A stretch of 64,000 nt of DNA from contig NZ_CM001240.1 of NCBI RefSeq assembly GCF_000230835.1, forward strand, positions 2,240,501 to 2,304,500, given 5' to 3'. The DNA is from Clostridium sp. DL-VIII (GTDB lineage Bacteria; Bacillota; Clostridia; Clostridiales; Clostridiaceae). The translations under genes were made by a program, and so were the position numbers. Shown here one piece after another: positions 32,979 through 64,000 of the stretch (the stretch's first letter is position 1; each line of letters starts with the position of its first letter). The notes beneath the pieces were generated by a model. It worked only from the letters and a program-made list of their open reading frames with translations. It was not told the DNA's origin and searched no databases.

Positions 32979-32989
32979 GGGGAAACGAT

Positions 32990-37319: not shown

Positions 37320-37391
37320 AATAATAGTTGCGCAGACCTTTTAATATATTGTAGTTGCAGGAATGGGGTATATTATGAATGAGTTTGATTT

Positions 37392-37592
37392 TCTGCAGGT
37401 ATTGCATTTTCATTTGCAAGATTAGGAAATGTTCATGCTATGAGTCATCCGGTGAGTGCATTTTTTAATGTGCCTCATGGAGTCGCTAATGCAATAGTAC
37501 TTCCAACAATTATAGAGTATAATGCACTTGCTGATAACGGTGAATATTATAAAATATATAATTATAGAGAAATGCTGGTTAAGGTGTCATGA
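37392..37592 (+). pseudogene. Iron-containing alcohol dehydrogenase remnant
   Basis: The frame reads SAGIAFSFARLGNVHAMSHP, then VSAFFNVPHGVANAIVLP and IIEYNA. This is the metal-binding segment of group III Fe-dependent alcohol dehydrogenases (GxxHAMxH...PHG). About 65 codons remain, with no start and a stop after a short unrelated tail. The rest of the 37320-37675 gap has no gene. Confidence 0.75.
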
Positions 37593-37675
37593 CAAAATTT
37601 AATGATATATATAATAAAATATCAGTTTACAAAAGAGGAAATATATGAGTATAATGCATATATATAATAAAATAT

Positions 37676-37723
37676 AAGGTAGGCAAAGGTGCTTAAAAAA
37701 AGTAATTTGCCTGCCTTTTTTTT
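37676..37723 (+). terminator. Terminator before the ABC transporter operon
   Basis: Stem AAGGTAGGCAAA / TTTGCCTGCCTT with one G-U pair, an 18-base loop, and a run of eight T. It divides the prd part from the transporter part of the cluster. Confidence 0.8.
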
Positions 37724-37802
37724 ATATCTTATAGTTAAAAAACATAAAACAACTTGCTGATAGGTCAATAAAAAAATTATTAAAATATGGGGAGGAAATA
37801 TT

Positions 37803-38633: not shown

Positions 38634-38676
38634 TTAGATAAGTCTATGCAGCCTAAAGAAAGGACAGGTATAATGT

Positions 38677-39321: not shown

Positions 39322-39328
39322 ATAATTA

Positions 39329-40057
39329 ATGATAGAAGTTAAACATTTAAAGAAAAATTTTGGTGATTTAGAAGTTTTACGTGATGTGAATATACACATA
39401 AAGCCTGGGGAAGTAGTATGTGTTATAGGACCATCAGGTTCAGGTAAAAGTACATTTCTGCGCTGCATAAATCAATTGGAAACAGTTACAAGCGGAGAAA
39501 TATTATATAATGGCAAGAATATTATTGATAAATCATATGATATTCGTAAATTTCGAGAAGAAGTTGGAATGGTTTTTCAGAGGTTTAATCTTTTCCCATT
39601 AAAAACAGTACTGCAAAATGTTATGATGGCTCCAATGCTAACTAAACATAAATCAAAGTCTGAAGCAAAGGAACTAGCAATAAAATTACTAAAAAGGGTT
39701 GGACTTGAAGAAAAAGCAGATGTCTATCCACCTACACTTTCTGGTGGGCAGCAGCAGCGTGTGGCTATTGCAAGAGCACTTGCAATGGAGCCACAAGCAC
39801 TATTGTTTGATGAACCAACCTCTGCGTTAGATCCTGAACTGGTTGGAGATGTGTTAAATACAATGAAGGATTTGGCAAAAGATGGCATAACAATGATTGT
39901 TGTAACTCATGAGATGGGCTTTGCCAAAGATGTAGCAGATCGCGTTGTTTTTATGGCAGATGGACTTATTGTAGAAGAAGGCAGACCTTCAGAAGTATTG
40001 GAAAATCCAAAGGAAGAGCGTACGAAATCATTTCTTGCCAGATTCTTAACAGCATAA
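39329..40057 (+). CDS. Amino acid ABC transporter, ATP-binding protein
   Basis: A 242-aa GlnQ-type ATPase: Walker A G34-PSGSGKS-T42, Q-loop FQRFNLFP, signature LSGGQQQR (137-144), Walker [13 protein letters not shown] and switch His in VVTHEMGFA. It energises the permease encoded just upstream. AGGTGAATAATTA serves as a weak ribosome site, and close spacing suggests translational coupling. Confidence 0.93.
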
Positions 40058-40070
40058 GGGGGAGAGGTAA

Positions 40071-40676
40071 ATGAGCAAATATGTAATTACAATTACTAGG
40101 CAGTTTGGAAGTTTAGGGCGTCCAATTGCCAAACGTTTATCAGAAATTCTGAATATAGAATACTATGATAGAGATATTGTGGAAGCATCAGCACAGAAAT
40201 TAAATCTTCCAATATCTGTTATAAGTGATCAGGAAGAGAGCAGTTCTGATTTCTTTAAAATGCTGTTTCCCCTTGGAACAGAAAATTTAAGTCAGCAGAA
40301 AAAAATATTTGAGACACAGTCAAAGATCATTCAGGAATTAGCAGATAAGGAAACCTGCATCATTGTAGGAAGATGTTCTGATTATATATTAAGAAATGAA
40401 AAAAATGCATTTCACATATATATTTATGCACCTTTGGATGCTCGTATGAGAAACTGTGTTGATAGTTTGGGAATGAGCACATCAGAAGCAGAAAAGATGA
40501 TTATGAGTGTCGACAAGGCAAGACTGGCATTTCATAAACAGTATGCAAAATATAGTCCTGGAGAACCAACGTCCAAGCATATTCTGGTAAATAGCGCGTT
40601 TCTCGGAGTTGAGGGTACGGCACAATTACTGGCATATGTTGTTAGAAAAAAATTTAGTGAATTAAAAGCCCTTTGA
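40071..40676 (+). CDS. Cytidylate kinase-like family protein
   Basis: A 201-aa protein of the cytidylate-kinase-like group. The N-terminus ITITRQFGSLGRPIAKRLSE replaces the usual P-loop with RQFGSLGR; later VGRCSDYILRNEKN is also typical. These proteins are common in clostridia next to transporters or metabolic clusters; their substrate is not established. GGGGGAGAGG precedes the ATG. It lies between the ATPase and the racemase and is probably co-transcribed with both. Confidence 0.75.
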   Translation: MSKYVITITRQFGSLGRPIAKRLSEILNIEYYDRDIVEASAQKLNLPISVISDQEESSSDFFKMLFPLGTENLSQQKKIFETQSKIIQELADKETCIIVGRCSDYILRNEKNAFHIYIYAPLDARMRNCVDSLGMSTSEAEKMIMSVDKARLAFHKQYAKYSPGEPTSKHILVNSAFLGVEGTAQLLAYVVRKKFSELKAL

Positions 40677-40701
40677 CAAAAGAATATAGGAGGGAATGAA
40701 T

Positions 40702-41748
40702 ATGAAGTTCAATCCAAAAACAATGGACTATAAATATAAATTCAAAACAATAGATTCTCATACCATGGGAGAGTCAACTAGAATTATATATGAAGGTTTT
40801 CCAGAAATTCCGGGTAAAACAATGATGGAGAAAAAGCAGTATTTAGAGAAGCATTATGATAATTGTCGAGAAGCAATTATGCTTGAGCCACGAGGACATA
40901 GAGATATGTTTGGGGCACTTCTTACAGAACCAATCCATGAAGAGGCAGATATAGGAGTAATATTCATGGACAGTGATAATTATTTAAATATGTGTGGGCA
41001 TGGCAGTATTGGGGTGGCTTCTATGGCTGTTGAAACTGGCATTGTTGAAGTAAAAGAACCATATACTGAAGTGGTTTTAGATGCCCCCTCCGGGATAATA
41101 CAAACAAAAGTTAGGGTTATTAACCATAAAGCAGTAAATGTAAGCATTATAAACGTTCCATCATTTTTGTATAAGAGTAATTTGCAAATAGAAGTACCTC
41201 AATATGGAAACATCACATATGATATTTCATTTGGAGGATCATTCTTTGCTTTGGTAGATGCAGATGCTATTGGTCTGAAATTAACAGAGGAGAACATGAA
41301 GGAGATTACAGATCTTGGAATGAAACTAAGAAAGATGATTAATTATACACAGAATATTAAGCATCCATATTTGGACATAACAACTGTGGATTTAGTGGAA
41401 TTTTATACGCATGATTGCAGTGACAAAGCCAGTATGAAGAACTGTGTAATTTTTGGAGGTGCTCAGGCAGACAGATCCCCATGCGGAACAGGAACAAGTG
41501 CTAAGCTTGCAGCACTGTATGCAAAAGGAGAGCTTGAAATTGGAGAAGAATTTGTTTATGAAAGTATTATAGGTTCTTTATTTATGGGAAAAGTGACAAA
41601 AGAAATTGAAATTGACGGAAAAAAGGGAATTATACCACAAATAACTGGAAGCGCATATATCACCGGAATGAATACATGGATATTAGATGATGACGATCCG
41701 CTGGAATTTGGTTTTAGCATTGGTACTAAGGTACAATCAAATAAATAA
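40702..41748 (+). CDS. prdF: Proline racemase
   Basis: A 348-aa PLP-independent racemase. The two catalytic Cys are C98 (NMCGHGSIG) and C261 (DRSPCGTGTSAK), the thiolate pair of proline racemase; the second motif with Cys rather than Thr separates it from dehydratase relatives. It makes D-proline for PrdAB. Hydroxyproline 2-epimerases share both Cys, so substrate rests partly on context. The start at 40702 has GGAGGG seven bases upstream; the ATG at 40696 is too close to it. Last gene of the prd/ABC run. Confidence 0.88.
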   Translation: MKFNPKTMDYKYKFKTIDSHTMGESTRIIYEGFPEIPGKTMMEKKQYLEKHYDNCREAIMLEPRGHRDMFGALLTEPIHEEADIGVIFMDSDNYLNMCGHGSIGVASMAVETGIVEVKEPYTEVVLDAPSGIIQTKVRVINHKAVNVSIINVPSFLYKSNLQIEVPQYGNITYDISFGGSFFALVDADAIGLKLTEENMKEITDLGMKLRKMINYTQNIKHPYLDITTVDLVEFYTHDCSDKASMKNCVIFGGAQADRSPCGTGTSAKLAALYAKGELEIGEEFVYESIIGSLFMGKVTKEIEIDGKKGIIPQITGSAYITGMNTWILDDDDPLEFGFSIGTKVQSNK

Positions 41749-41788
41749 CAAGTCCATTTGCCAGCCTATTTTCCATCATCAAAGGAGG

Positions 41789-41810
41789 TTAAATTGCATG
41801 TGCAATTTAA
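41789..41810. repeat. Perfect palindrome overlapping a small-ORF start
   Basis: TTAAATTGCA-TG-TGCAATTTAA, 22 bp, directly after AAAGGAGG. It could hide the ribosome site or start in a hairpin, or serve as an operator. Confidence 0.5.
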
Positions 41811-41870
41811 CTAAGTTCGAGAAACCAAATACAAGATTTGGACTCTCACTTATAATAGGCCCACTATGAG
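41799..41870 (+). CDS. Possible 23-aa small protein or leader peptide
   Basis: ATG at 41799, ten bases after a strong AAAGGAGG, encodes MCNLTKFEKPNTRFGLSLII plus GPL and a stop. The hydrophobic end could touch membrane. The ribosome site is far better than chance, but no relatives are known to me. The rest of the gap to 42199 holds only a weak hairpin with T-run at 42081-42106. Confidence 0.35.
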
Positions 41871-42199
41871 GGCAATTACTTTCTTGCCTGATGAAAAATA
41901 TCCATGTCAACTTTGGACTTGTTATTTATTTTCATGTGCCTAAGGAGATGAAGAGGGAAGAAAGTATTCAGTAATGAATTTGTAGGCATTACTATGATAA
42001 TAGTAGGAATTGAAATACAGATAAGAGAATCGAAAAAATACAAAAAAAATTATGATTATAAGTAATTAAAATGAAATTTTAGAGTGGGGGAAATCTCACT
42101 CTTTTTAAGAATTTAAGTGAATCTTAGTTGAACTTGAATAGTTGAATAGTAAAGAAAGTTTTAAGATATCGTTATCCAAAAAGAATTGAGGAGTTAATT

Positions 42200-43114
42200 T
42201 TGAAAAATGTATATATAACAAATATTCAAAAATATTCAATACATGATGGGGATGGAATTCGTACTACTATATTTTTTAAAGGCTGCCCTTTACGATGTAG
42301 TTGGTGTCATAATCCTGAGACTCAAAATTATGAGAAGGAAATAATGTACAATAAAGAACAGTGTACAAAATGCAGGCAATGTATTGAAATATGTCCACAA
42401 AAAGCAATACATGTTAAAGAAGAATATATGTTTACAGAAAAAGAAATTTGCAAAGCTTGTGGCACTTGCACTGACTATTGCTTGCAAAATGCTAGAAATA
42501 TAGCTGGAAAACATTACTCTGTCTCAGAGCTTATAAAAGAGGTAGAAAAAGATTATTTATTTTATGAAGAATCAGGAGGTGGAGTTACTTTATCTGGTGG
42601 AGAAGTTATGGCTATGGATATGGAATACGTAGAAAAACTTGTAAAAGAATTTCACAAAAGAGGAATCAGAGTTAATATTGATACTTGTGGCTTTACTTGT
42701 TATGAAAACTTTGAAAAAATTCTAGCGGTTATAGATACATTTTTATATGATTTAAAACTTATAGATAATGAACTTCATAAAAAGTATACAGGAGTAGATA
42801 ATACACTGATTCTGGATAACTTAAAAAAACTTTATAAAGATAAAGCCAAAATTTATATTAGGATTCCTCTCATTGAAGGTGTGAATGCTGAGGAGAAGCA
42901 TATAAGAGATATAATAAAATATTTGCTAAGTAACAATATAAGGCCTCATAGAATTAATCTTTTGCCATATCATAATACGGGAATGAGTAAATATTACAAA
43001 TTACAAAAAATATATGAAGGTGATAACTGGCGTGCTCCAGATCCTAAGAAGATGCAAGAATATAAAAAAGAATTTGAAAAGTATGGATTTATAAATGTTA
43101 TTATAGGAGGTTAA
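42200..43114 (+). CDS. Glycyl radical enzyme activase (radical SAM) for HypD
   Basis: A 304-aa activase. The radical-SAM cluster is C29-x3-C33-x2-C36 (GCPLRCSWCHNPE), followed by an inserted ferredoxin domain with C55/C58/C61/C65 and C84/C87/C90/C94. It uses S-adenosylmethionine to place a glycyl radical on the adjacent enzyme. Start is TTG at 42200 with GAGGAG upstream; the YITNIQKYSIHDGDGIRTT segment is family-typical. It lies three bases before hypD, the usual order. Confidence 0.92.
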   Translation: MKNVYITNIQKYSIHDGDGIRTTIFFKGCPLRCSWCHNPETQNYEKEIMYNKEQCTKCRQCIEICPQKAIHVKEEYMFTEKEICKACGTCTDYCLQNARNIAGKHYSVSELIKEVEKDYLFYEESGGGVTLSGGEVMAMDMEYVEKLVKEFHKRGIRVNIDTCGFTCYENFEKILAVIDTFLYDLKLIDNELHKKYTGVDNTLILDNLKKLYKDKAKIYIRIPLIEGVNAEEKHIRDIIKYLLSNNIRPHRINLLPYHNTGMSKYYKLQKIYEGDNWRAPDPKKMQEYKKEFEKYGFINVIIGG

Positions 43115-43117
43115 ATT

Positions 43118-45490
43118 ATGGAAAGAGGAATGAACGATCGTATTAAAAAACTTAGAAAACAAAGTGTAGATACAGAAGCGCATATATATATGGAAAGAGC
43201 TAAAATTATGACTGAAACATATAAAGAATATGAAGGTACAGTATCTGTACCAGAGCTTCGTGCTATTTGTCTTAAAAATTATTTTTCAAAAAAAACTCTA
43301 TGTATTAATGAAGGTGAACTCATTGTAGGAGAAAAAGGTGATGGTCCTCAAGCAGCTCCAACATTTCCAGAACTTTGCTGTCATACTATAGAAGATATGC
43401 ATGTTATGAATGATAGAGATTTAATTAGCTTTAATGTTAAAGATAAAGATTATGCATATCAAGAAGAAGTTATTATTCCATTTTGGAAAAATCGTTCTAT
43501 TCGTAACTTAATCTTAAGAAATATGAGTAATGAATGGAAAAATGCTTATGAATGCGGTATTTTTACTGAATTTATGGAACAAAGAGGGCCAGGTCATACT
43601 GTGGGTTCTGGAAAAATATATGAAAAAGGATTTTTAGATTACAAAGAAGATATAAAGAAAGCTATAACTGAGTTAGATTTTTTAAATGATGCCGAAGCAT
43701 TAGACAAAAAAAATCAATTATCAGCAATGAGTATAGCATGCGATGCAATTATTATTTTAGGCGAAAGATATGCAAAGCTTGCAAGAGAAGAAGCAGAAAA
43801 AACATCAGATCCTTCATGGAAAGCGGATCTTTTGCAGATTGCAGAAAACTGTGAAGTAGTTCCAGCTCATAAACCAAAAACCTATTGGCAGGCCTTACAG
43901 ATGTATTGGTTTGTGCATCTTGGGGTTACTTCTGAATTAAATCCATGGGATGCATATAGCCCAGGAAGATTAGATCAACATATATATCCTTTCTATGAGA
44001 ATGATATTGAAAAAAATATTTTAAATGATGAAAAGGCAAAAGAACTTTTAGAATGTCTTTGGATAAAATTTAACAACCAGCCTGCTCCACCTAAAGTAGG
44101 GATTACACTAAAAGAGAGCAGTACCTATACAGATTTTGCAAATATTAATACTGGAGGAATAACTCCAGATGGAGAAAATGGTGTAAATCCTGTTAGTTAC
44201 TTGATTTTAGACTGCATGGATGAAATGAAACTTTTGCAGCCAAGTTCAAATGTTCAAATCAGTCGTAAAACTCCACAGAAGTTCTTAAAAAGAGCTTGTG
44301 AAATATCAAGAAAAGGATGGGGACAGCCTGCCTTTTATAATACGGAAGCAATTATTCAGGAATTATTAAATGCTGGGAAAAGTATTGAGGATGCGAGAAC
44401 TGGAGGAACAAGTGGTTGCGTAGAAACAGGAGCTTTTGGAAATGAAGCTTATATTTTAACTGGATATTTTAATCTTCCCAAGATATTTGAACTTACTTTA
44501 AATAATGGATATGACAAGGTAAATGGTAAACAATTGGGTTTAGAACTTGGGTATGCTGAAGATTTTAATACTTATGAAAAACTTTTTGATGCTTACAAGA
44601 GGCAGATTGAATATTTCCTTGATATAAAAATTAAGGGAAGTAATATTATTGAAAAAATATATGCAGATAATATGCCTGTACCGTTTTTGTCTATAATTAC
44701 TAATGACTGTATTAAAAAAGGAAAGGATTATAATGCAGGAGGAGCACGTTATAATACAAATTACATTCAAGGGGTTGGCATAGGAACTATCACAGACAGC
44801 TTGGCATCTGTAAAATATAATGTATTTGATGAAAAAAAATTTACTATGAAAGAGCTCATGAATGCCCTTGAAAATAATTTTGAAGGCTATGAGAGAATAC
44901 TTAATTTAGTTCGTAATAAAACACCGAAATATGGCAATGATGACCCTTATGCAGATTCAATTATGAAAAGTGTTTTTGACTTTTATAGCAAAAGTGTTAC
45001 AGGCAGGCCTAATATGAAAGGTGGAACATATAGAATTAACATGCTTCCAACTACATGTCATGTATATTTTGGAGAAGTAATGATGGCCAGTCCTAATGGT
45101 AGATTTGCTTATAAACCGGTATCAGAGGGGATTTCACCTGAAAAGGGTGCTGATACAAAAGGTCCTACTTCAGTGATAAAGTCAGCATCTAAGATGGATC
45201 ATTTAAGAACAGGGGGAACATTATTAAATCAAAAATTTACTCCTAGTGTTGTAGCAGGGGAAAATGGTTTGGAACAAATGTCAAATCTTATACGTACTTA
45301 TTTTAATATGGATGGACATCATATTCAATTTAATGTTATTGATAGAGAAACTTTGATACAAGCACAAAAAAATCCTGAAGAATATAAAGATTTGATTGTG
45401 AGAGTTGCAGGCTATAGCGATCATTTTAGAAATCTTAGTAAGGCACTACAAGATGAAATAATTGAACGTACAGAACAATCATTTAATTAG
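43118..45490 (+). CDS. hypD: trans-4-hydroxy-L-proline dehydratase, glycyl radical enzyme
   Basis: A 790-aa PFL-like enzyme. By direct count the residues reported for C. difficile HypD all fall at the same numbers: F152, D278, S334, F340, thiyl C434 and E436 (GTSGCVETGAF), Y450, T645 and radical G765 (RVAGYSDHF). This is strong evidence against choline or glycerol dehydratase. The product, pyrroline-5-carboxylate, would be reduced to proline by ProC (not in this window) and then used by the racemase and PrdAB upstream. Start ATG 43118 follows AGGAGG. Confidence 0.95.
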   Translation: MERGMNDRIKKLRKQSVDTEAHIYMERAKIMTETYKEYEGTVSVPELRAICLKNYFSKKTLCINEGELIVGEKGDGPQAAPTFPELCCHTIEDMHVMNDRDLISFNVKDKDYAYQEEVIIPFWKNRSIRNLILRNMSNEWKNAYECGIFTEFMEQRGPGHTVGSGKIYEKGFLDYKEDIKKAITELDFLNDAEALDKKNQLSAMSIACDAIIILGERYAKLAREEAEKTSDPSWKADLLQIAENCEVVPAHKPKTYWQALQMYWFVHLGVTSELNPWDAYSPGRLDQHIYPFYENDIEKNILNDEKAKELLECLWIKFNNQPAPPKVGITLKESSTYTDFANINTGGITPDGENGVNPVSYLILDCMDEMKLLQPSSNVQISRKTPQKFLKRACEISRKGWGQPAFYNTEAIIQELLNAGKSIEDARTGGTSGCVETGAFGNEAYILTGYFNLPKIFELTLNNGYDKVNGKQLGLELGYAEDFNTYEKLFDAYKRQIEYFLDIKIKGSNIIEKIYADNMPVPFLSIITNDCIKKGKDYNAGGARYNTNYIQGVGIGTITDSLASVKYNVFDEKKFTMKELMNALENNFEGYERILNLVRNKTPKYGNDDPYADSIMKSVFDFYSKSVTGRPNMKGGTYRINMLPTTCHVYFGEVMMASPNGRFAYKPVSEGISPEKGADTKGPTSVIKSASKMDHLRTGGTLLNQKFTPSVVAGENGLEQMSNLIRTYFNMDGHHIQFNVIDRETLIQAQKNPEEYKDLIVRVAGYSDHFRNLSKALQDEIIERTEQSFN

Positions 45491-54967: not shown

Positions 54968-56263
54968 TCAACAGTTGTACTTAATATGCAGATCGCGTGA
55001 TGCACCCAGTCCAGCAAATAAGCATAACGCGGAAGCACCGATTAAGACAATAAGTGGTAATTCCCAGCTGTTAGATGCATCATGTAGAAAACCAAAAAGC
55101 ATCGGTCCAAAAGCAGCGAGTAGGTAGCCGATTGACTGTGCCATGCCGGACAATCTTGCCGCTTCATCTGCATTTCTTGTACGAGAACTAAAAAATATCA
55201 TAGCTAGGCAAAAAGTAAGTGTTCCACCAATGCCCAACATAATCATCCATAGGAATATAAGCCCTGTCCATTTTAAGAATATGCCCAAAAGTCCCACCAA
55301 AACACATAGAGAGGCAATGATAACTAATGGACGTTGATTGGCTTTACGTTGAGCAAGGACAGAACCCCAAAATGATACAGGGAGCGATACCAATTGATAA
55401 AGGGAGAGCATCCATCCTGCTTTGTCTGAATTCATACCTTGCTGGATTAAAATAGCAGGCAACCATGCAACCATGCAATAGAGTAGCATAGACTGTAATC
55501 CCATATATACCGATACCTGCCATGCCAAAGTAGATTTCCATAAGTTAACTTTATTAATGACATCTCCGTTAATACTCTCTATTTCATTTTTTTCTTCATG
55601 GATGTCTTTTACTTTTGTTTTAATGTCATTATCGATCGTTCCTTTATCAATGGACATTTCTTGCTTTCTATGTATTATTTGAGGTATCCAGATGATAATG
55701 GATAAGAAACTAAGTGCAGCCCAAATGCTTAACGCTCCGCTCCATCCAAATCTCGATTTTGCCGCAACAGGGACACTGATACCGGATGCTATCGCCCCAA
55801 AAAGGCTCATAGAAGCAGTATAGATGCCAGTTATCAAACCGACCTGTTTAGAAAATTCACGTTTGATTAGACTGGGTATTAGCACATTGCCGACAGAAAT
55901 GGACAATCCAAGGATTAATGTTCCAAGAAATAGTCCCACCCCTCCAAGCAATGAACGTAATATAATTCCGAAAGTCAGAAAAATAAGTGACCAAAGCAGC
56001 ACCAATTTAGTGCCAAATTTTCGCGCCAAACGTGGAGCGAAAGGTGAGAACCCTGCAAAAGCGAATAACGGAAGGGTTGTAATCATACCTGCTAATGTAT
56101 TTGAAATATGTAAGCTACCACGAATTTGATTGACCAACGGGCCAACCGCTGTTAAAGGTGAACGTAAATTTGCTGCAATAAATACAATTCCAATTATCAG
56201 CATTATTGGTGTATTTCTTTTTGAATATAGGTTCTTTTTGTGTTCGTTATGTAATTGATTCAT
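54968..56263 (-). CDS. MFS transporter, CynX/NimT (cyanate/2-nitroimidazole) type
   Basis: A 431-aa, 12-helix MFS protein. N-terminal FIAANLRSPLTAVGPLVNQI is the hallmark of the CynX/NimT branch, and the inter-helix ARKFGTKLVLL and central charged loop (about 200-245) fit. Members export drugs or small anions. AAGGAGAG precedes the ATG. A MarR gene lies upstream in the same orientation; both genes have a near-identical operator in front. Confidence 0.85.
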   Translation of the reverse strand: MNQLHNEHKKNLYSKRNTPIMLIIGIVFIAANLRSPLTAVGPLVNQIRGSLHISNTLAGMITTLPLFAFAGFSPFAPRLARKFGTKLVLLWSLIFLTFGIILRSLLGGVGLFLGTLILGLSISVGNVLIPSLIKREFSKQVGLITGIYTASMSLFGAIASGISVPVAAKSRFGWSGALSIWAALSFLSIIIWIPQIIHRKQEMSIDKGTIDNDIKTKVKDIHEEKNEIESINGDVINKVNLWKSTLAWQVSVYMGLQSMLLYCMVAWLPAILIQQGMNSDKAGWMLSLYQLVSLPVSFWGSVLAQRKANQRPLVIIASLCVLVGLLGIFLKWTGLIFLWMIMLGIGGTLTFCLAMIFFSSRTRNADEAARLSGMAQSIGYLLAAFGPMLFGFLHDASNSWELPLIVLIGASALCLFAGLGASRDLHIKYNC

Positions 56264-56462
56264 TTATATAGTCTCTCCTTAAAATATGATACGATTTTTT
56301 TACATTAAATATAATATTTAGAGTCTCTCATTGCATCGTTTTAGCTACAAGTATTTTAAGTTTATACTTTTGTTCACTCACTTCACTATTATCATAACTG
56401 ATATATAGCCTTGATGAGTTTTTCTTTTTGATGCTAGCCCTCCTAACTTAATTACACTGAAA

Positions 56463-56485
56463 ATGTGTATAGCATCCATACACTT
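56463..56485 (-). promoter_or_regulatory. MarR operator candidate upstream of the MFS gene
   Basis: On the minus strand AAGTGTATGGATGCTATACA, with GTGTAT / ATACAC arms. It matches 18 of 20 positions of the site before marR (56977-56999). It lies about 200 bases before the MFS start; nothing else is seen in the 56264-56496 gap. Confidence 0.6.
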
Positions 56486-56496
56486 GCGTAAAATTT

Positions 56497-56970
56497 TTAT
56501 TCATCAAAATTTTCGTTAAAAAATTTAACCTTGTTTATCAGGCTCGACAAAAAGTTTGACAAAAACTCTAATTCATGTTCGGAGGCATTTTGTAGTTCAT
56601 CTTCAACCATATTATTTATAATAGAATGATAGAGAATATGGTTGCTATGAGCTTTTTTACCTTTTTCAGTAAGACTTAATGAATATCTAGATAAATTAAG
56701 ATCATCAACTTCTTTTATAACCAGAGCCTTTCTCTCTAGCTTTTTGAGAATTTCAGAAACAGCCCCTTTTGTTACTCCTAGAATATCGGCAAGTCCACCT
56801 ACATGAATGCCAGGATGTCCGGCAATAGCCTTTATTACATGTATTTCAGAGTGAAAAATCGGTACATCCGTTCCGAAGTAGCGAGTCTTTTTATCAAGGT
56901 CAGTCAAGGCAAACGCTAAGTCCATAGAATTATATGCAATTTGATGTTTGTTATTTATAAATTTATCCAT
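56497..56970 (-). CDS. MarR-family regulator
   Basis: A 157-aa MarR protein: HVIKAIAGHPGIHVGGLADI, the recognition helix VTKGAVSEILKKLERKALV, and the wing SRYSLSLTEKG. It probably represses itself and the MFS gene downstream through two near-identical sites. No strong ribosome site is visible before this ATG (weak AACATGG context). Confidence 0.85.
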   Translation of the reverse strand: MDKFINNKHQIAYNSMDLAFALTDLDKKTRYFGTDVPIFHSEIHVIKAIAGHPGIHVGGLADILGVTKGAVSEILKKLERKALVIKEVDDLNLSRYSLSLTEKGKKAHSNHILYHSIINNMVEDELQNASEHELEFLSNFLSSLINKVKFFNENFDE

Positions 56971-57364: not shown

Positions 57365-57400
57365 AAAAGGATAACCACAAAAAAACGCGGTTATCCTTCT
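57365..57400 (-). terminator. Terminator overlapping the end of the regulator gene
   Basis: On the minus strand AAGGATAACC / GGTTATCCTT, 10-bp stem with a 12-base loop and TTTTTT. The stop codon of the regulator lies inside the ascending arm. Confidence 0.8.
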
Positions 57401-58704
57401 AAGAGGCTTCCCTCACTGTCGAGAAATAGTAGCTCATAGTACTTTTGGGGTCTTCCTTTGCCGCTGTCTCTTTTTTCAAATACAGTTCTCGCATATTCTT
57501 TTTCTTCGATTTTGTTAAGAATACGGTTTGCGCCTCTGACGGTGATGGACAGGCATTGGGCGACATCCTCAGAAGATAGTTTGTTTGTTCTCATAATTTC
57601 TGCATAATACATGATTTTCTGTAGGTTGATATTATTTATTCCAATGCGTTTTGCCAATGCCATGATTGCTGGATCGCCCTTTTCAGAGAACTGTATAACA
57701 TTCATGTTCTGCATTGGTCCGATTACCTTCTGATCCTCGTTTATAAAAAAGCTGCAGCTGCCTGTAAAGGCATTGGCCTGACGGTGAGCTCTGACGGCGT
57801 TTTCGTTAGCCTGATAATATTCATGCCCAGAGCCCCATCCGATTATTACCTTGTCGCTTGCATACTCTTCTAAATATTTCAACAGTGCACAGTTCTGTGC
57901 ATTAGAGGTGATTTTTATAAAATTTCCGTAGGTGGTGTATAGTTTGACAAAGCCTTCCGAGACTTGGGCCGTATCTGGAAGATTCACATTGCGCAGAAAC
58001 CTGCCGGCTAGCACTTTCAGCTCATGAAGTTGCTCTTCGGACTGTGGGTGCGCCGTTTCGATCGATAAGCATGCCACAACTGCACTCCTGCTCTTGAGCT
58101 CGAGGATGGTAATTTCGTTGATGATCCCACTTATGGTTTCTTTAACGTTTTCCAAAGTGGGTCGTATTAAGATATACCTTACCCCGTGTTTTTTTAGTTC
58201 TGGAACAAAGTGGCTGAATGCCGTAATCGACAAGTCTATTTTATTCTCTTCCCACAGTGTTATATGGTTTTCAAGCATTGTTTCAACTCTTTCGAACAGA
58301 TTATCGCTATCAATAGGCTTTCCCTGATGAGTCAGATACTTTTGGAATTCACTGAAAGAATCGATAATATATGCAAAATCCACATAAATTCTTGATATGT
58401 CAAGCCCCGGTTCAGTAAGCAGCAGCCTAAATAGTTCTCTGTAAAGAAGGGTTTCATTATCCTGCAAAATGTGCGTAGGTACTTTCGTATCTAAACATTC
58501 CTTATCTATTGACTCGTAAAGAAGCCTGCCGCTGATAACAAATCCGTCCACCGAATCTAAGTTGTTTAGATATAAGTCTTTTGTTTCCCTAAAGTTACTG
58601 ATTGTAAGAATCCGAAACTTACATACCGACTGCAATTCTTCTTCAATTTCACGGAAATAGTCTATATAAGATTCCGTCGTGATTATACCAAGTCTGATTT
58701 TCAT
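57391..58704 (-). CDS. Unfamiliar winged-helix transcriptional regulator with large sensor domain
   Basis: A 437-aa protein. Residues 1-110 look like an alpha/beta receiver or PrpR-type sensor (LGIITTESYIDYFREIEEEL, VDGFVISGRLLYESI). The middle (about 165-340) is a second alpha/beta domain, ending SGHEYYQANENAVRAHRQA. The C-terminal 75 residues are a winged helix (KLSSEDVAQCLSITVRGANR, SGKGRPQKYYEL). I cannot name the family. It is divergent from the amidohydrolase and crotonase genes with paired direct repeats around their promoter, so it is the probable local regulator. GC content rises from here on. AAAGGAA precedes the ATG. Confidence 0.6.
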   Translation of the reverse strand: MKIRLGIITTESYIDYFREIEEELQSVCKFRILTISNFRETKDLYLNNLDSVDGFVISGRLLYESIDKECLDTKVPTHILQDNETLLYRELFRLLLTEPGLDISRIYVDFAYIIDSFSEFQKYLTHQGKPIDSDNLFERVETMLENHITLWEENKIDLSITAFSHFVPELKKHGVRYILIRPTLENVKETISGIINEITILELKSRSAVVACLSIETAHPQSEEQLHELKVLAGRFLRNVNLPDTAQVSEGFVKLYTTYGNFIKITSNAQNCALLKYLEEYASDKVIIGWGSGHEYYQANENAVRAHRQANAFTGSCSFFINEDQKVIGPMQNMNVIQFSEKGDPAIMALAKRIGINNINLQKIMYYAEIMRTNKLSSEDVAQCLSITVRGANRILNKIEEKEYARTVFEKRDSGKGRPQKYYELLFLDSEGSLLEG

Positions 58705-58791
58705 GGCAAATTCCTTTCATAAACAATTAATGACATGAATTATAACATAAAAAATATGATATTTCAATGATGCCAGTAGTTGGAAAAAATA

Positions 58792-58869
58792 TGTTCTTAA
58801 AATGTCTTATTTTATTATTGACAACTTTTTGTGCTTAAAGTACAATGAAAGTGTTCTTAAAATGTCTTA
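58792..58869 (+). promoter_or_regulatory. Promoter of the amidohydrolase/crotonase operon flanked by direct repeats
   Basis: TTGACA (58818-58823), 17-base spacer, TACAAT (58841-58846). An 18-base direct repeat TGTTCTTAAAATGTCTTA occurs at 58792-58809 and exactly 60 bases later at 58852-58869, one copy upstream of the -35 and one over the start region. Confidence 0.75.
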
Positions 58870-58937
58870 AAATAAAAAATAAGAAAATTTCAATCTGTTA
58901 TTCACTAATACAATTTATTTTTAAGGAGGTGTTAATT

Positions 58938-60152
58938 TTGGCTGAAAAAACTGAAGAATTTTTAAATATGGCCAATCAGTTACAGGAAAAATTGGTCATG
59001 TACAGACATCATCTTCATTCGATTCCGGAACTTGATCTAAGGTTACCTGGGACAACTGCTTATGTAAAAGAGGCGTTGGAGTCGATTGGCCTTAAGCCCA
59101 CTCCCGTGGGAGAATCAGGCTTAATGGTAACCATCGGCGGACAACGCCCCGGGAAGGTGATTCTTATTCGTGCAGATATGGATGCGCTGCCAATTAAAGA
59201 AGAAACGGATCTTCCTTTTGCGTCATCCAACGGAAATATGCATGCATGCGGTCACGACATGCATACTTCAATGCTGCTAGGCGCTGCAGAGATACTAAAG
59301 GCAAATGAAGGAAAGCTTTTAGGAACGGTCAAACTTATGTTTCAGCCGGGCGAAGAAACCTTGCATGGTGCCAAGATGATGCTTGAAAATGGGATCCTCG
59401 AAAATCCTAAAGTGGATGCGGCAATGATGCTACATGTAATGACAGGAATTCCGTTTCCAATTGGATTATTTATTACGCCTGAGGCTGGAGGAGCGAGTTC
59501 AGCTTCTTCAGATTGGTTCGAAGTCATCATCCAAGGAAAGGGTGCACATGGAGCGATGCCTAATGCCGCAGTAGATCCATTAAATGTAATTGCTCACCTT
59601 CATCTGGCGCTACAGGGTATCATAAGCCATGAAATTTCTCCAACTGATAGTGCAGTTCTTACGGTTGGAGTAATGGAAGGCGGAACTACAAACAACGTGA
59701 TTCCCGATACTGCCAGGATTAAAGGCAGCGTACGTACTTTTGACGCCGTATTGCGGGAAAAAATCGAAACCCGTATCCGGGAAATTTCCACAGGTATTGC
59801 GAAAACATTTGATGCAAAGGCAGAGGTGATTTATACCAGGGGCTGTCCCGAAATAAAAAATGACAGCGAGCTTAGCCGTCAAATGAGAACCACTATAGCA
59901 AACACTTTTGGTGCAGATTCCTATATCTATCTATCACAACTAATACCCGGTGGTAAATTAATGGGATCTGAAGACTTCTCATTTGTAACGCAAGAGGTGC
60001 CAAGTATCTCGGTGTTTATTAATGCAGGCAATTCCAAGGAGGGGTATAGTTACCCTATGCACCATCCAAAGGTAATATTCTCGGATGATGTGCTTAAGAA
60101 AGGTGCTGCCGCTTACGCGGCTTTCGCCAGAGATTGGCTTGAAAATAATTAA
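58938..60152 (+). CDS. M20-family amidohydrolase (hippurate/N-acyl amino acid hydrolase type)
   Basis: A 404-aa zinc metallopeptidase-fold hydrolase: RHHLHSIPELDLRLPGTTAY, DMDALPIKEET, ACGHDMHTSMLLGAA, FQPGEE, dimerisation-domain KGAHGAMPN, and late GSEDFSFVTQEVP. It removes an acyl or similar group from an amide. Start is TTG at 58938, set by AAGGAGGT seven bases before; an upstream ATG frame (58845) crosses the promoter and an operator. First gene of an operon with three crotonase-fold genes, so the amide may be a substrate or product of C-C hydrolysis. GC-richer than the window mean. Confidence 0.85.
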   Translation: MAEKTEEFLNMANQLQEKLVMYRHHLHSIPELDLRLPGTTAYVKEALESIGLKPTPVGESGLMVTIGGQRPGKVILIRADMDALPIKEETDLPFASSNGNMHACGHDMHTSMLLGAAEILKANEGKLLGTVKLMFQPGEETLHGAKMMLENGILENPKVDAAMMLHVMTGIPFPIGLFITPEAGGASSASSDWFEVIIQGKGAHGAMPNAAVDPLNVIAHLHLALQGIISHEISPTDSAVLTVGVMEGGTTNNVIPDTARIKGSVRTFDAVLREKIETRIREISTGIAKTFDAKAEVIYTRGCPEIKNDSELSRQMRTTIANTFGADSYIYLSQLIPGGKLMGSEDFSFVTQEVPSISVFINAGNSKEGYSYPMHHPKVIFSDDVLKKGAAAYAAFARDWLENN

Positions 60153-60183
60153 TAATATTAAAACAAAATTAGGAGGAATTAAA

Positions 60184-61014
60184 ATGTCAGAGAACCGTAT
60201 GATTGGACCAACAAAATTCGAAGAGTACTCAGAGAAGTACAAAGACTTTTTATTAATGACCCGTCGTGATGGAATAATTGAAGTAAGATTGCACACTAAC
60301 GGAGGACCATATGAACATAATTGGGAAGCCCATACCGCATGGTCTCATGCATGGTCAGATATTGGCCGTGACCCTGAAAACGAGGTAATGATTATTTCTG
60401 GAACAGGGGATAAATGGGTAGTAGGAAACCCCGATGTCTGGAACACAAAATTTATGGATTGGCCTAAACAAAAGAAACTTGAACAATATCATGAATCACT
60501 AAGACTACTTGAAAATATGATATTCTGTATTGATATCCCTACAATCGGGGCGATAAATGGCCCTGGAACTCACTGTGAAATTGCATCTCTTTGCGATATT
60601 ACGATTTGTACAGAAGACGCGGATTTTTTTGATCCACATTTTATAGGAGGCACACCTCCTGGAGATGGAATGATTCTTACATTGCAGAACATGATAGGTT
60701 TTAAGAAAGCAGCATACTATGCATACACTGGTAAGAATATTAATGGTCAAACAGCATTAGAGCTTGGTATAGTCAGTGAAGTGTTACCAAGCGAAAAGCT
60801 TCTTCCACGTGCTTGGGAACTTGCAGAGATGATAATGCAAGCACCTCGTTCAGCGAGACATCTTACTCATTCAATTTTATCACGTCCTTGGAAAAAAGCC
60901 TTAGTAAGTGATCAAGGGTTCCAACTTACTCATCAAATGTACGACATGGCCATTGATGAAGAAGGTGTTCATGAAAGATTGACAAAAATGAAAGGGCGCT
61001 TAATGGGCAAATAA
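60184..61014 (+). CDS. Crotonase-fold hydrolase, 6-oxocamphor-hydrolase-like, copy 1
   Basis: A 276-aa crotonase-superfamily protein. Enoyl-CoA hydratase Glu pairs are absent. Instead H130 (NGPGTHCE), H152 and D161 (DPHFIGGTPPGDG) and E249/E250 match in spacing the H122, H145, D154 and E244 that I recall for Rhodococcus 6-oxocamphor hydrolase, which splits a C-C bond of cyclic beta-diketones without CoA. The N-terminal KFEEYSEKYKDFLLMTRRDG and the GIVSEVLPSEKLLPRAWELA segment also fit that branch. AGGAGG precedes the ATG. It is 32 bases after the amidohydrolase. Confidence 0.78.
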   Translation: MSENRMIGPTKFEEYSEKYKDFLLMTRRDGIIEVRLHTNGGPYEHNWEAHTAWSHAWSDIGRDPENEVMIISGTGDKWVVGNPDVWNTKFMDWPKQKKLEQYHESLRLLENMIFCIDIPTIGAINGPGTHCEIASLCDITICTEDADFFDPHFIGGTPPGDGMILTLQNMIGFKKAAYYAYTGKNINGQTALELGIVSEVLPSEKLLPRAWELAEMIMQAPRSARHLTHSILSRPWKKALVSDQGFQLTHQMYDMAIDEEGVHERLTKMKGRLMGK

Positions 61015-61204
61015 GAACAATAGTATTAAATTGATTTTTAAGTAAAGAATAGTGACAGAGGGGCTATATGTGTTACCTCTCCAGCATCTAAAGGTGATAT
61101 TCTCGGATAAAGACTTAATAAAGGTGCTGCCGCTTACGCGGATTTTGCCAGAGATTGGATTGAAAATAACTAATAATATAAAATCAAAATTAGGAGGAAT
61201 TAAA

Positions 61205-62035
61205 ATGTCAGAGAACCGTATGATTGGACCAACAAAATTTGAAGAGTACTCAGAGAAGTACAAAGAGTTTTTATCAATGACCCGTCGTGATGGAATAATT
61301 GAAGTAAGATTGCACACCAACGGAGGACCATATGAACATAATTGGGAAGCCCATACTGCATGGTCTCATGCATGGTCAGATATTGGCCGTGACCCTGAAA
61401 ATGAGGTAATGATTATTTCTGGAACAGGGGATAAATGGGTAGTAGGAAACCCAGATGTGTGGGAAACAAAATTTATGGATTGGCCTAAACAAAAGAAACT
61501 TGAACAATATCATGAATCACTAAGACTACTTGAAAATATGATATTCTGCATTGACATCCCTACAATCGGGGCGATAAATGGTCCTGGAACTCACTGTGAA
61601 ATTGCATCTCTTTGCGATATTACGATTTGTACAGAAGACGCGGACTTTTTTGATCCACATTTTATAGGAGGCACACCTCCTGGAGATGGAATGATTCTTA
61701 CATTGCAGAACATGATTGGTTTTAAGAAAGCAGCATACTACGCATACACTGGTAAGAATATTAATGGGCAAACAGCATTAGAGCTTGGCATAGTAAGTGA
61801 AGTGTTGCCACGCGAAAAGCTTCTTCCACGTGCTTGGGAACTTGCAGAGATGATAATGCAGGCACCTCGTTCAGCGAGACATCTTACTCATTCAATTTTA
61901 TCACGTCCTTGGAAAAAAGCCTTAGTCAGTGATCAAGGTTTCCAACTTACTCACCAAATGTACGACATGGCTATTGATGAAGAAGGTGTTCTTGAAAGAT
62001 TGACGAAAATGAAAGGGCGCTTAATGGGCAAATAA
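61205..62035 (+). CDS. Crotonase-fold hydrolase, 6-oxocamphor-hydrolase-like, copy 2
   Basis: A 276-aa near-duplicate of copy 1; by eye only about half a dozen residues differ (for example DFL-LM to EFL-SM, VWN to VWE, PSEK to PREK, GVH to GVL). All candidate catalytic residues (H130, H152, D161, E249/E250) are kept, so both copies should be active on the same or similar substrate, and gene dosage is the simplest benefit. The upstream 150 bases carry a decayed copy of the amidohydrolase tail. Confidence 0.78.
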   Translation: MSENRMIGPTKFEEYSEKYKEFLSMTRRDGIIEVRLHTNGGPYEHNWEAHTAWSHAWSDIGRDPENEVMIISGTGDKWVVGNPDVWETKFMDWPKQKKLEQYHESLRLLENMIFCIDIPTIGAINGPGTHCEIASLCDITICTEDADFFDPHFIGGTPPGDGMILTLQNMIGFKKAAYYAYTGKNINGQTALELGIVSEVLPREKLLPRAWELAEMIMQAPRSARHLTHSILSRPWKKALVSDQGFQLTHQMYDMAIDEEGVLERLTKMKGRLMGK

Positions 62036-62081
62036 GGACAATAGCATTAAATTGATATTGGAAGTAAAGAAATAGTGATAG

Positions 62082-62144
62082 AGGGGCTATATGCCTTTAA
62101 GTATAAAACTAAAGGCAAACGGCCCCTTTGTTAAGTTTTTTAAG
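62082..62144 (+). terminator. Nested hairpin with T-run between copies 2 and 3
   Basis: Outer stem AGGGGC / GCCCCT, inner stem GCCTTTA / TAAAGGC, then TTTGTTAAGTTTTTT. It should lower transcription into the third gene, which may need its own promoter. Confidence 0.6.
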
Positions 62145-62177
62145 AAATACTGGCATTTTTGCTAAGGAGGAATCGAA

Positions 62178-63014
62178 ATGTCTGATAGATGTATGGTGGG
62201 GCCTACAAGGTTCGAAGAATACTCAGAGAAGTACAAAGACTTTTTCATAATGACCCGCCGTAACGGCATAATCGAAGTACGTTTTCATACTAATAGGGGA
62301 CCGTTTCAATTTGACTGGCCGGGCCAAACCGCATATGGTAATGTATGGTCAGATATTGGCCGTGACCCTGAAAACGAGGTGATGATTCTTACGGGGACAG
62401 GGGATTTGTGGCAAATAGGAAATCCAGAAGTCTGGAAAACAAAATTTATGGATTGGCCGAGAAACCGTAAGCTGGAAATGTATCATGAATCCTTGAGAAT
62501 GATTGAAAATATGATCTATTGCATCGACATTCCAACAATTGGGGCGATTAATGGTACAGGATCACACTGGCAACTGGGAACGTTTTGTGATATTACAATT
62601 TGTGCTGAAGGCACAGAATTTTTCGATGCACATTATCTTGGTGGTATACCTCCTGGAGATGGAATAGTTTTAACATTTCAAAATTTACTAGGGATTAAGA
62701 GAGCGGCATTTTACGCATACACAGGTATGAACATTAATGCTCAATCGGCATTAGACCTCGGTATGGTTAGTGAAGTACTGCCACGTGAAAAGCTTCTTTC
62801 ACGTGCATGGGAACTCGCAGAGATGATAATGAAGGCACCTCGCTCTGCGAGACATCTTACTCATTCAATTTTATCTCGCCCTTGGAAAAAAGCCTTAGTC
62901 AGTGATCAAGGTTTCCAACTTACTCGCCAATTGTACGACATGTCCATTGATGAAGAGGGTGTGCTTGAGAGATTGATAAAAATCAAGGGACGTTTTCAGG
63001 GGAATGAAAGATAG
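62178..63014 (+). CDS. Crotonase-fold hydrolase, 6-oxocamphor-hydrolase-like, divergent third paralog
   Basis: A 278-aa paralog, clearly related to copies 1 and 2 but diverged in the substrate region (GPFQFDWPGQTAYGNVW, NGTGSHWQLGTFCD). The candidate catalytic His and Asp are kept (SHWQ, DAHYLGGIPPGDG, and EE near 251). The C-terminal 90 residues are almost the same as in copies 1 and 2, which suggests gene conversion. AAGGAGG precedes the ATG. It may take a different beta-diketone or the next intermediate. Confidence 0.76.
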   Translation: MSDRCMVGPTRFEEYSEKYKDFFIMTRRNGIIEVRFHTNRGPFQFDWPGQTAYGNVWSDIGRDPENEVMILTGTGDLWQIGNPEVWKTKFMDWPRNRKLEMYHESLRMIENMIYCIDIPTIGAINGTGSHWQLGTFCDITICAEGTEFFDAHYLGGIPPGDGIVLTFQNLLGIKRAAFYAYTGMNINAQSALDLGMVSEVLPREKLLSRAWELAEMIMKAPRSARHLTHSILSRPWKKALVSDQGFQLTRQLYDMSIDEEGVLERLIKIKGRFQGNER

Positions 63015-63154: not shown

Positions 63155-64000
63155 ATGAAATCATTGACAGAATTATATAAGATCGGCAGTGGGCCGTCCA
63201 GTTCCCATACAATGGGTCCGGAAAAAGCCGCTAGAATCTTTAAAACAGAAAATGAGGGCGCAGAACGCTTCAAGGTATTGATTTATGGTTCCCTTGCAAA
63301 AACGGGCAAGGGTCATATGACTGACAAGGCCATTATTAAGGCACTGTCACCAGTTCCAACTGAGATTGAATTTATTACTCACGCAGATTTTATTCTGCCT
63401 CATCCCAATACCATTGATTTTTTAGATTACAAAGACGGGCGGCAAACAACATCAATGCGTGTTGTAAGTGTCGGCGGCGGGGATATAGTTATCGATGGGC
63501 GTGAGGAAATGTTGGTACCGGATATATATAAGGAAAATACCTTTGCAGAAATCAGCAGCCTCTGTAAAGCAAACAATATCAGCCTAAGCGAGTACATCGA
63601 GCAGTGCGAAGGCAAAAAGATTTGGGATTTTCTCTATGAAATCTGGGATGCGATGAAGCATTCCATTAACGAAGGGCTTATATCCACAGGTGTTCTAGAA
63701 GGTGGTCTCAACGTAGAACGAAAGGCGCAATTTCTTTATAACCAGCGGCATATCGATGAGAGCCCGGAGACTCGTGAAAACAGGATTGTCTGTGCTTATG
63801 CTTTCGCTGTCAGCGAGCAGAATGCCGCCGGTGGTACAATCGTAACAGCCCCAACATGTGGCGCAAGCGGTGTGGTGCCGGCAGTGCTCCGTTATATGCA
63901 AGAGAAGAAAAATGTGACGGACGAACAGATCATACGGGCTCTGGCAGTTGGAGGTCTAATTGGCAACCTAATCAAGCAGAATGCATCCATCAGCGGTGCT
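63155..64000 (+). CDS. L-serine ammonia-lyase, iron-sulfur type, single chain (3' end outside window)
   Basis: 282 codons are visible and the frame is open at the window edge. The beta-domain signature GSGPSSSHTMGPEKA is at residues 11-25, and the start of the alpha domain is VTAPTCGASGVVPAVLRYM, holding one cluster Cys. The enzyme converts L-serine to pyruvate and ammonia using a labile [4Fe-4S] cluster. AAGGAG precedes the ATG. It follows the crotonase genes by 140 bases with similar GC-rich codon use; a functional link is not evident. Confidence 0.9.
   Translation, partial: MKSLTELYKIGSGPSSSHTMGPEKAARIFKTENEGAERFKVLIYGSLAKTGKGHMTDKAIIKALSPVPTEIEFITHADFILPHPNTIDFLDYKDGRQTTSMRVVSVGGGDIVIDGREEMLVPDIYKENTFAEISSLCKANNISLSEYIEQCEGKKIWDFLYEIWDAMKHSINEGLISTGVLEGGLNVERKAQFLYNQRHIDESPETRENRIVCAYAFAVSEQNAAGGTIVTAPTCGASGVVPAVLRYMQEKKNVTDEQIIRALAVGGLIGNLIKQNASISGA

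What the first reader, a model, noticed from the sequence alone, without database searches (positions are those of the whole stretch)
57391..63014. Operon with three beta-diketone-hydrolase-like crotonases, an M20 amidohydrolase and its own regulator
Seen: three tandem crotonase-fold genes with conserved H130, H152, D161 and E249/E250 instead of enoyl-CoA hydratase Glu residues, after an M20 hydrolase and facing a regulator I cannot place. Known: 6-oxocamphor hydrolase uses His/His/Asp/Glu at this spacing to cleave cyclic beta-diketones without CoA. Inference: a catabolic unit for a cyclic diketone joined to an amide, in an anaerobe, where C-C hydrolysis without oxygen would be valuable. I know of no described clostridial pathway with this gene set.
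Basis: partly seen in the sequence, partly recalled or inferred. Interest (0 to 1): 0.75.

Follow-up and report, generated by a model that had tools for sequence, protein, structure and literature searches.

The report
Operon with oxocamphor-hydrolase-like crotonases and deacylase
A rare, apparently horizontally spreading bacterial gene set probably breaks a carbon-carbon bond in a 1,3-dicarbonyl compound without oxygen or coenzyme A and then releases and consumes an amino acid, perhaps serine; the natural substrate is still unknown.

Summary
The genes exist as described. By sequence, predicted structure and tree the crotonases side with 6-oxocamphor hydrolase (OCH) and Anabaena beta-diketone hydrolase. 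H130, H152 and D161 sit on OCH catalytic columns (76 of 76 rows in one alignment; H130 in 45 of 46 in another). Corrections: E249/E250 is absent (the OCH E244 column is Gln251); the three crotonases are two older types (CRO1, CRO3) plus a recent CRO1 copy (CRO2); CRO3 has lost His50 and Glu132; the operon runs on into an Fe-S L-serine dehydratase (SDA). Elsewhere REG | M20-CRO1-CRO3, with SDA in 12 of 19, recurs in Paenibacillus, Lacrimispora, Clostridium, Hungatella and Mogibacterium. A twin operator brackets the M20 promoter in 19 of 19 loci. The regulator is PrpR_N-like + GGDEF-like + winged helix; most remote relatives taken sit beside M20 genes. In two anaerobe genomes a remote crotonase lies with BKACE, thiolase and butyrate kinase, the logic of cyclic 1,3-dione degradation. 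Best reading: CoA-free retro-Claisen hydrolysis coupled to deacylation of an N-acyl-serine and serine deamination. Boldest: retro-Dieckmann opening of a serine-derived tetramic acid. Substrate and activity are untested.

The parts
57391..58704 (-). REG: one-component regulator, 437 aa: PrpR_N-like sensor (about 1-205), nucleotidyl-cyclase/GGDEF-like domain (about 206-335), winged-helix C-terminus
58739..58767 (-). putative REG promoter (TTGAAA-17-TATAAT on the minus strand)
   Evidence: read and counted by eye in the intergenic sequences
58793..58809 (+). operator copy 1, GTTCTTAAAATGTCTTA
   Evidence: the only two exact hits in the 6.48-Mb genome are this and copy 2
58818..58846 (+). sigma-70-type promoter TTGACA-17-TACAAT of the M20 operon
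   Evidence: TTGACA lies between the two operator copies in 19 of 19 loci
58853..58869 (+). operator copy 2, identical to copy 1, 60 bp downstream
58938..60152 (+). M20 amidohydrolase (TIGR01891), start TTG 58938 with AGGAGGTG upstream
60184..61014 (+). CRO1: OCH/ABDH-type crotonase, 276 aa
61058..61173 (+). remnant copy of the M20 3' end carried by the CRO1 tandem duplication (right end approximate)
   Evidence: 60039-61070 matches 61058-62093 at 94.6%
61205..62035 (+). CRO2: recent tandem copy of CRO1, 98% identical protein; 24 of 28 nucleotide differences at third codon positions
62178..63014 (+). CRO3: second, older crotonase type (72% identical to CRO1) lacking the OCH His45 and Glu124 equivalents
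63155..64000 (+). SDA: fused Fe-S L-serine dehydratase, 402 aa, continues to about 64363 beyond the window
   Evidence: the intact homologue in L014 passes the TIGR00720 cut-off (387.4 against 345.1)

Best explanation
A locally repressed catabolic operon. CRO1 (and its copy CRO2) is a CoA-independent hydrolase of the 6-oxocamphor hydrolase type: the H152/D161 dyad activates water, which attacks one carbonyl of a 1,3-dicarbonyl substrate, and H130 stabilises the enolate or oxyanion, so a C-C bond is broken hydrolytically (retro-Claisen) without oxygen. CRO3 is an altered paralogue that works with CRO1, either on a related bond or as a partner subunit. The M20 enzyme hydrolyses an amide to free an amino acid, and SDA deaminates it, most likely L-serine, to pyruvate and ammonia. 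REG binds the twin operator around the M20 promoter and represses until its sensor domain binds the substrate or a product. Shown: family membership, conserved catalytic columns, cassette conservation, twin operator. Inferred: chemistry, substrate, order of steps, REG-operator binding and the sign of regulation.
Against: OCH E244 is Gln in CRO1-3, and the OCH Trp40 column is His (CRO1) or Phe (CRO3), so the pocket differs from OCH. E132 at the first ECH Glu column is retained in CRO1/CRO2. CRO3 lost H50 and E132. SDA is missing in 5 of 19 cassettes (2 more run off the contig), so serine is not a necessary product everywhere; in the window a 140-bp gap precedes SDA and could hold its own promoter. 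L013 (Pelosinus) keeps CRO1 with only a remnant of M20. A second crotonase copy in G042 (L150) stands outside any BKACE cluster. I saw no transporter gene common to the cassettes. No activity data exist.
Confidence: 0.5

Rival explanations
1. Detoxification rather than nutrition: the cassette inactivates an antibiotic or plant/fungal defence compound containing a 1,3-dicarbonyl, with an exporter as optional partner.
For: A two-component system plus ABC-2 exporter adjoins REG in L011, L017, L027 (about 80-110 bp) and lies 0.9-4.2 kb after SDA in L021, L022, L026, its four proteins 53-74% identical between the two groups. ABC/ABC-2 genes stand upstream of solo crotonases in L028 (directly) and L032 (one TetR-like gene between); the best NCBIfam subfamily for the L028 and L032 ATPases is lantibiotic protection, the second best for L011's, all below cut-off. 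The cassette is patchy, 88-95% alike in CRO1 across families for the nearest loci, and is the GC peak of the window, 0.40 against mean 0.317, sd 0.031.
Against: The exporter is near only 6 of 19 cassettes; the window genome has no close copy (29%); four Paenibacillus cassette genomes have a 50-51% copy elsewhere than in the fetched flank; serine dehydratase and the REG-M20 link suggest use of the products.
Confidence: 0.3
2. Ordinary CoA-dependent enoyl-CoA hydratase/isomerase function (the automatic annotation).
For: Pfam ECH_1 hits and source names 'enoyl-CoA hydratase/isomerase'; the first ECH Glu column is kept in CRO1/CRO2.
Against: None of the 25 best NCBIfam models shown for each crotonase reaches its cut-off (57 to 62 models matched per protein); the second ECH Glu column is His and the next motif carries D161 in 76 of 76 rows; structure and tree favour OCH/ABDH.
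Confidence: 0.05
3. The deacylase acts first: M20 splits an N-acyl amino acid, and the crotonases then cleave the freed beta-diketo acid; the amide and the 1,3-dicarbonyl need not share one ring.
For: Gene order M20-CRO1-CRO3-SDA; M20 is the usual neighbour of the remote REG relatives examined.
Against: Gene order does not fix reaction order; CRO loci without an M20 gene in the flank exist (L028, L032; only a remnant in L013).
Confidence: 0.3

Closest known systems
6-oxocamphor hydrolase (OCH, PDB 1o8u, 1szo)
   Different: Glu244 is Gln251, the Trp40 column is His or Phe; operon with M20, SDA and REG; a second altered paralogue CRO3
Anabaena beta-diketone hydrolase (ABDH, 2j5g/2j5s)
   Different: published catalytic Glu243 (PMC3584854, passages); at the OCH E244 column CRO1-3 have Gln, and the ABDH row of my alignment ends before that column
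Anaerobic phloroglucinol pathway of Clostridium scatologenes (DPGC, TfD, TAL; PMC10470551, passages)
   Same: retro-Claisen ring opening of a cyclic 1,3-dione by an anaerobe followed by beta-keto acid cleavage; the remote relatives in G042/G785 share BKACE, thiolase and butyrate kinase
   Different: DPGC is an Mn-dependent 'cyclase' family enzyme, not a crotonase; the window operon has M20 and serine dehydratase instead
YxeP / IAA-amino acid hydrolase type M20 enzymes (1ysj, 1xmb)
   Same: whole-length homology; metal-site motifs kept as read by eye in the alignment to 1ysj
   Different: natural substrate here unknown; neighbour of two OCH-type crotonases
PrpR/NtrC-type PrpR_N sensor domains (2q5c, 2pju)
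   Different: REG shows no sigma-54 activator domain by Pfam; it has a GGDEF-like domain and a winged helix; no Pfam hit at all

Membership tests
OCH/ABDH-type CoA-independent beta-diketone hydrolases | closest sequence and structure relatives are OCH/ABDH rather than ECH | tested here: met
OCH/ABDH-type CoA-independent beta-diketone hydrolases | His122, His145, Asp154 of OCH | tested here: met
   H130, H152, D161 in 76 of 76 rows; in alignment A1 45, 46 and 46 of 46 (the exception P0120 has Gln for H130)
OCH/ABDH-type CoA-independent beta-diketone hydrolases | His45 of OCH / His43 of ABDH | tested here: met
   Met for CRO1/CRO2: His in 21 of 21 CRO1-type and 37 of 37 other rows. Not met for CRO3: 0 of 18 (Gln 12, Leu 6)
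OCH/ABDH-type CoA-independent beta-diketone hydrolases | Glu244 of OCH / Glu243 of ABDH | tested here: not met
   Gln251 in 21 of 21 CRO1-type and 18 of 18 CRO3-type rows; Glu in 17, Gln in 18 of 37 other rows. So filed as a relative of this group, not as a full match to OCH
OCH/ABDH-type CoA-independent beta-diketone hydrolases | hydrolysis of a 1,3-diketone C-C bond without CoA | not testable with these tools
   needs an assay
Enoyl-CoA hydratase (crotonase sensu stricto) | two catalytic Glu residues (rat ECH E144, E164; numbering recalled) | tested here: not met
   second Glu column is His in 76 of 76 rows; the first is Glu in CRO1/CRO2 (E132) but Gln or Leu in CRO3. The three ECH-type rows have Glu at the second column (3 of 3) and Glu at the first in 2 of 3
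TIGR01891 amidohydrolase (M20) | score above curated cut-off | tested here: met
   318.3 against 153.75 bits
TIGR00720 L-serine ammonia-lyase, monomeric | score above curated cut-off; Fe-S cysteines | tested here: met
   Met for the L014 homologue: 387.4 against 345.1; three Cys aligned with 4rqo as read by eye. The window's own copy was scanned only as its first 281 residues (197.1, below cut-off)
PrpR_N domain regulators | Pfam PrpR_N sequence match | tested here: not met
   no Pfam family at E 1e-3; resemblance is by predicted fold only

The most novel reading that the evidence does not exclude
The operon degrades serine-derived 3-acyl tetramic acids (such as the Fusarium antibiotic trichosetin) by an enzymatic retro-Dieckmann reaction: the OCH-type crotonases hydrolyse the C3-C4 bond of the pyrrolidine-2,4-dione ring to an N-(3-oxoacyl)-L-serine, M20 releases serine, and SDA deaminates it. 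This single scaffold explains the 1,3-dicarbonyl hydrolase, the deacylase and the serine dehydratase together, the threonine dehydrogenase variant in L030, and the exporter beside some cassettes. I know of no such pathway in print; three library searches (listings, plus passages of PMC5408200 and PMC10470551) showed none.
Probability: 0.12. Interest if true: 0.85.

Novelty: new variant of a known kind. Interest (0 to 1): 0.5.

Why it matters
OCH and ABDH are the only enzymes named as beta-diketone or oxocamphor hydrolases among the PDB matches listed here. A conserved, apparently mobile operon with two such enzymes and its own regulator and operator gives a direct route to a physiological substrate, and suggests that oxygen-free, CoA-free C-C bond hydrolysis serves fermenting bacteria for more than phenolics. 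The remote cluster with BKACE, thiolase and butyrate kinase is a ready candidate for the hydrolytic ring-opening step of an anaerobic 1,3-dione (resorcinol-like) pathway.

Tried and rejected
Plain enoyl-CoA hydratase: rejected on active-site columns, structure ranking and tree. Three equivalent crotonases: rejected; CRO2 is a young copy, CRO3 an older, altered type. The exporter/two-component module as an obligate partner: rejected, near 6 of 19 cassettes and not close in the window genome. MarR/MFS genes at 54968-56970 as part of the unit: not supported; relatives lie at varying distance in some loci such as L010, L014 and L016. A REG regulon elsewhere in the genome: the operator occurs exactly only at this locus; 3 further hits have 2 mismatches, against 4 hits of the reversed control pattern. 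Mesotrione-type triketone substrate (a 67% relative, of the CRO3 kind by its residues, is named from Paenibacillus mesotrionivorans): no supporting paper seen in the listing. Tetracycline substrate (an FAD monooxygenase with a sub-cut-off tetracycline destructase hit near the crotonase in Rhizobiales): not pursued. Rfam (gathering thresholds) and tRNA scans of the window found nothing.

Caveats. Tree: only three ECH-type rows; OCH and ABDH are long branches; midpoint root; two partial rows (L012_1895, L027_10001) were dropped before the tree and before the column counts, and the short L015 CRO3 ORF did not enter. In high-GC loci many crotonase ORFs were mis-framed by my ORF caller, so not all 79 loci entered. 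REG's GGDEF-like domain was judged from VIA rows only, and its C-terminal domain was not searched on its own.
Full report
WHAT IS THERE. The window is G000:C1:2240501-2304500 of a 6.48-Mb single-contig genome. REG runs on the minus strand (57391-58704); facing it on plus are M20, three crotonase genes and a serine dehydratase gene that runs out of the window to about 64363. CRO1 and CRO2 proteins are 98% identical; 60039-61070 matches 61058-62093 at 94.6%, so the repeat unit includes the M20 3' end and CRO1; 24 of 28 coding differences are at third positions, as expected if both copies are kept (gene conversion is not excluded). CRO3 is 72% identical to CRO1.

ACTIVE SITE. Columns read on a MAFFT alignment, rows counted: 21 CRO1-type, 18 CRO3-type, 37 other family rows. 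OCH H122, H145, D154 = CRO1 H130, H152, D161: 76 of 76. In alignment A1 (46 rows, 43 of them database proteins) H152 and D161 are in 46 of 46 and H130 in 45. OCH H45 = H50: His in 21 of 21 and 37 of 37, but in 0 of 18 CRO3 (12 Gln, 6 Leu). OCH E124 = E132: Glu in 21 of 21 and 37 of 37, in 0 of 18 CRO3 (17 Gln, 1 Leu). OCH E244 = Q251: Gln in all CRO1 and CRO3 rows; of the 37 others 17 Glu, 18 Gln, 1 Ile, 1 gap. The published catalytic set of ABDH is D153, H144, E243, H43 (PMC3584854, passages). The roles of OCH H122, H145, D154 and W40 are recalled; two library searches showed no OCH enzymology paper. So CRO1/CRO2 keep the His/Asp core with a Gln in place of the Glu, and CRO3 is a systematically altered type. 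The CRO1 and CRO3 clades (support 90/80 and 100/100) each hold the cassette rows that entered the tree, Mogibacterium included: the split is older than the cassette's spread, and both types are kept.

THE CASSETTE ELSEWHERE. A genome-contig scan gave 79 loci (154 of 196 pattern matches encoded a relative; the best 80 were kept). M20-CRO1-CRO3 occurs in 19 of the 79, from records named Lacrimispora, Paenibacillus, Paenibacillaceae, Fontibacillus, Clostridium sp. HBUAS56010, Hungatella and Mogibacterium. Three of these are damaged or cut: L012 (M20 cut by the contig end), L015 (short CRO3 ORF), L027 (M20 in two ORFs, short CRO1). REG is present in 18 of 18 where the contig reaches. SDA follows in 12 of 19, is absent in 5 (L010, L011, L012, L027, L029), and cannot be judged in 2 (L009, L017). 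Among the 19 and the window, only the window shows a CRO2. The family is rare: 3 of 59 genomes (own included) match at E 1e-20, and none of the 35 other same-genus genomes does (the third, in G052, groups with ECH in the tree); 2 of 398 in the phylum, own included, at E 1e-40; 10 of 197 in the family of P. macerans, 8 of them with two genes. CRO1 identity to the window is 88-95% for L009-L027, and the cassette is the GC maximum of the window (0.40; mean 0.317, sd 0.031 for 5.6-kb windows). Both suggest horizontal transfer; I did not test this against a species tree.

SERINE DEHYDRATASE. SDA is a fused beta-alpha Fe-S enzyme with a shortened beta domain relative to 4rqo and three aligned Cys kept (read by eye). 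Each SDA-cassette genome examined (G000, G061-G065; 6 of 6) has this copy plus a second SDA at 35-44% identity to the query, so the cassette copy looks dedicated. In L030 (Eubacteriales bin, 3.6 kb) M20 (47%) and CRO are followed by a gene above the cut-off for L-threonine 3-dehydrogenase (576.7 against 380). This is one contig only, but it hints that the amino acid released is Ser or Thr.

REGULATION. Two copies of GTTCTTAAAATGTCTTA lie 56-60 bp apart with TTGACA between them in 19 of 19 intergenic regions (window plus 18); 18 of 19 have both copies at 3 or fewer mismatches; the Mogibacterium pair differs by 3 and 4, three changes being shared; 0 of 5700 mononucleotide shuffles gave such a pair. 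The exact 17-mer occurs only twice in the whole genome, both here. The genomes are related, so 19 is not 19 independent events. The pair brackets the core promoter, which suits a repressor; binding by REG is inferred from position. REG has a PrpR_N-like sensor, a cyclase/GGDEF-like domain and a C-terminal winged helix. Of 391 class genomes, 9 including the own have REG relatives. In the 10 remote loci taken (8 genomes) the neighbours include M20 genes in 7 by Pfam (L122, L123, L124, L125, L126, L128, L129; L122 and L126 only by the dimerisation domain) and in L130 by eye; an Amidohydro_3 gene in L127; none seen in L131. AbgT-type transporters are confirmed in L124 and L125 and look alike in L129 and L130. 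So REG is the kind of regulator that goes with deacylases; that the crotonases were added in this lineage is inference.

ANAEROBIC 1,3-DIONE LOGIC IN REMOTE RELATIVES. In G785 (L149) and G042 (L151) a relative with the same His/His/Asp columns (33-34% identity to CRO1) is followed by butyrate kinase, BKACE, phosphate butyryltransferase and thiolase genes; a BaiCD-like ene-reductase (below the equivalog cut-off) lies directly upstream in L151 and about 4 kb upstream in L149 (in L151 the kinase, PTB and thiolase were named by likeness to L149). A second crotonase copy of G042 (L150) has no such neighbours. In C. [quoted passage not shown] The crotonase is the natural candidate for ring opening in L149/L151. 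This supports CoA-free 1,3-dicarbonyl hydrolysis as the family's chemistry, by context only.

MECHANISM. Most likely: water activated by H152/D161 attacks a carbonyl of a 1,3-dicarbonyl; H130 and perhaps H50 stabilise the leaving enolate; the C-C bond breaks; an amide in the same molecule is hydrolysed by M20; serine is deaminated by SDA. A serine-derived 3-acyl tetramic acid would need exactly these steps: trichosetin is built from L-serine and is thought to be released by Dieckmann cyclisation, and equisetin inhibits Gram-positive bacteria (PMC5408200, passages). Against it: such compounds are strongly enolised, unlike the OCH substrate (recalled), and the exporter link is partial. I give that reading 0.12.

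LIMITS. No activity, no ligand, no expression data. Statements that something is not in print rest on the named searches of one open library (listings, and passages of three papers).

Noticed in passing
L149:2618-14459 and L151:5069-13275 (genomes G785, G042): Gene cluster with BaiCD-like ene-reductase, OCH-type crotonase, butyrate kinase, BKACE, phosphate butyryltransferase and thiolase: a candidate anaerobic resorcinol / cyclohexane-1,3-dione pathway in which a crotonase takes the ring-opening role held by DPGC in the phloroglucinol pathway.
   Followed up: partly
L011:3567-7125, L017, L027 and L021:15867-19420, L022, L026: A four-gene ABC-2 exporter plus two-component module lies on opposite sides of the cassette in the Lacrimispora-like and the Paenibacillus loci (53-74% identical), and more distant ABC-2 exporters lie upstream of solo crotonases in L028 and L032.
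   Followed up: partly
L034:7181-10804, L035, L036 (Rhizobiales): The crotonase relative lies downstream of an FAD monooxygenase with sub-cut-off similarity to tetracycline destructases, a DUF3313 gene and a small cysteine-bearing protein (families searched in L034 only).
   Followed up: no
L013:9616-10846 (Pelosinus fermentans JBW45): CRO1 kept at 93% identity behind an ORF that ends in the last residues of M20; transposase-like genes (by eye) lie nearby, suggesting a decayed cassette.
   Followed up: no
window 31671-45490: By eye: a proline reductase-like cluster, a proline-racemase-like gene, amino-acid ABC uptake genes and a glycyl-radical enzyme with activase, suggesting a Stickland-type proline/hydroxyproline region.
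   Followed up: no
REG-M20 intergenic of L010-L027 (window counterpart about 58745-58761): By eye: an inverted repeat of the type ATCA-N9-TGAT within the putative REG promoter spacer in many of the compared loci (imperfect in the window), a possible second control site.
   Followed up: no
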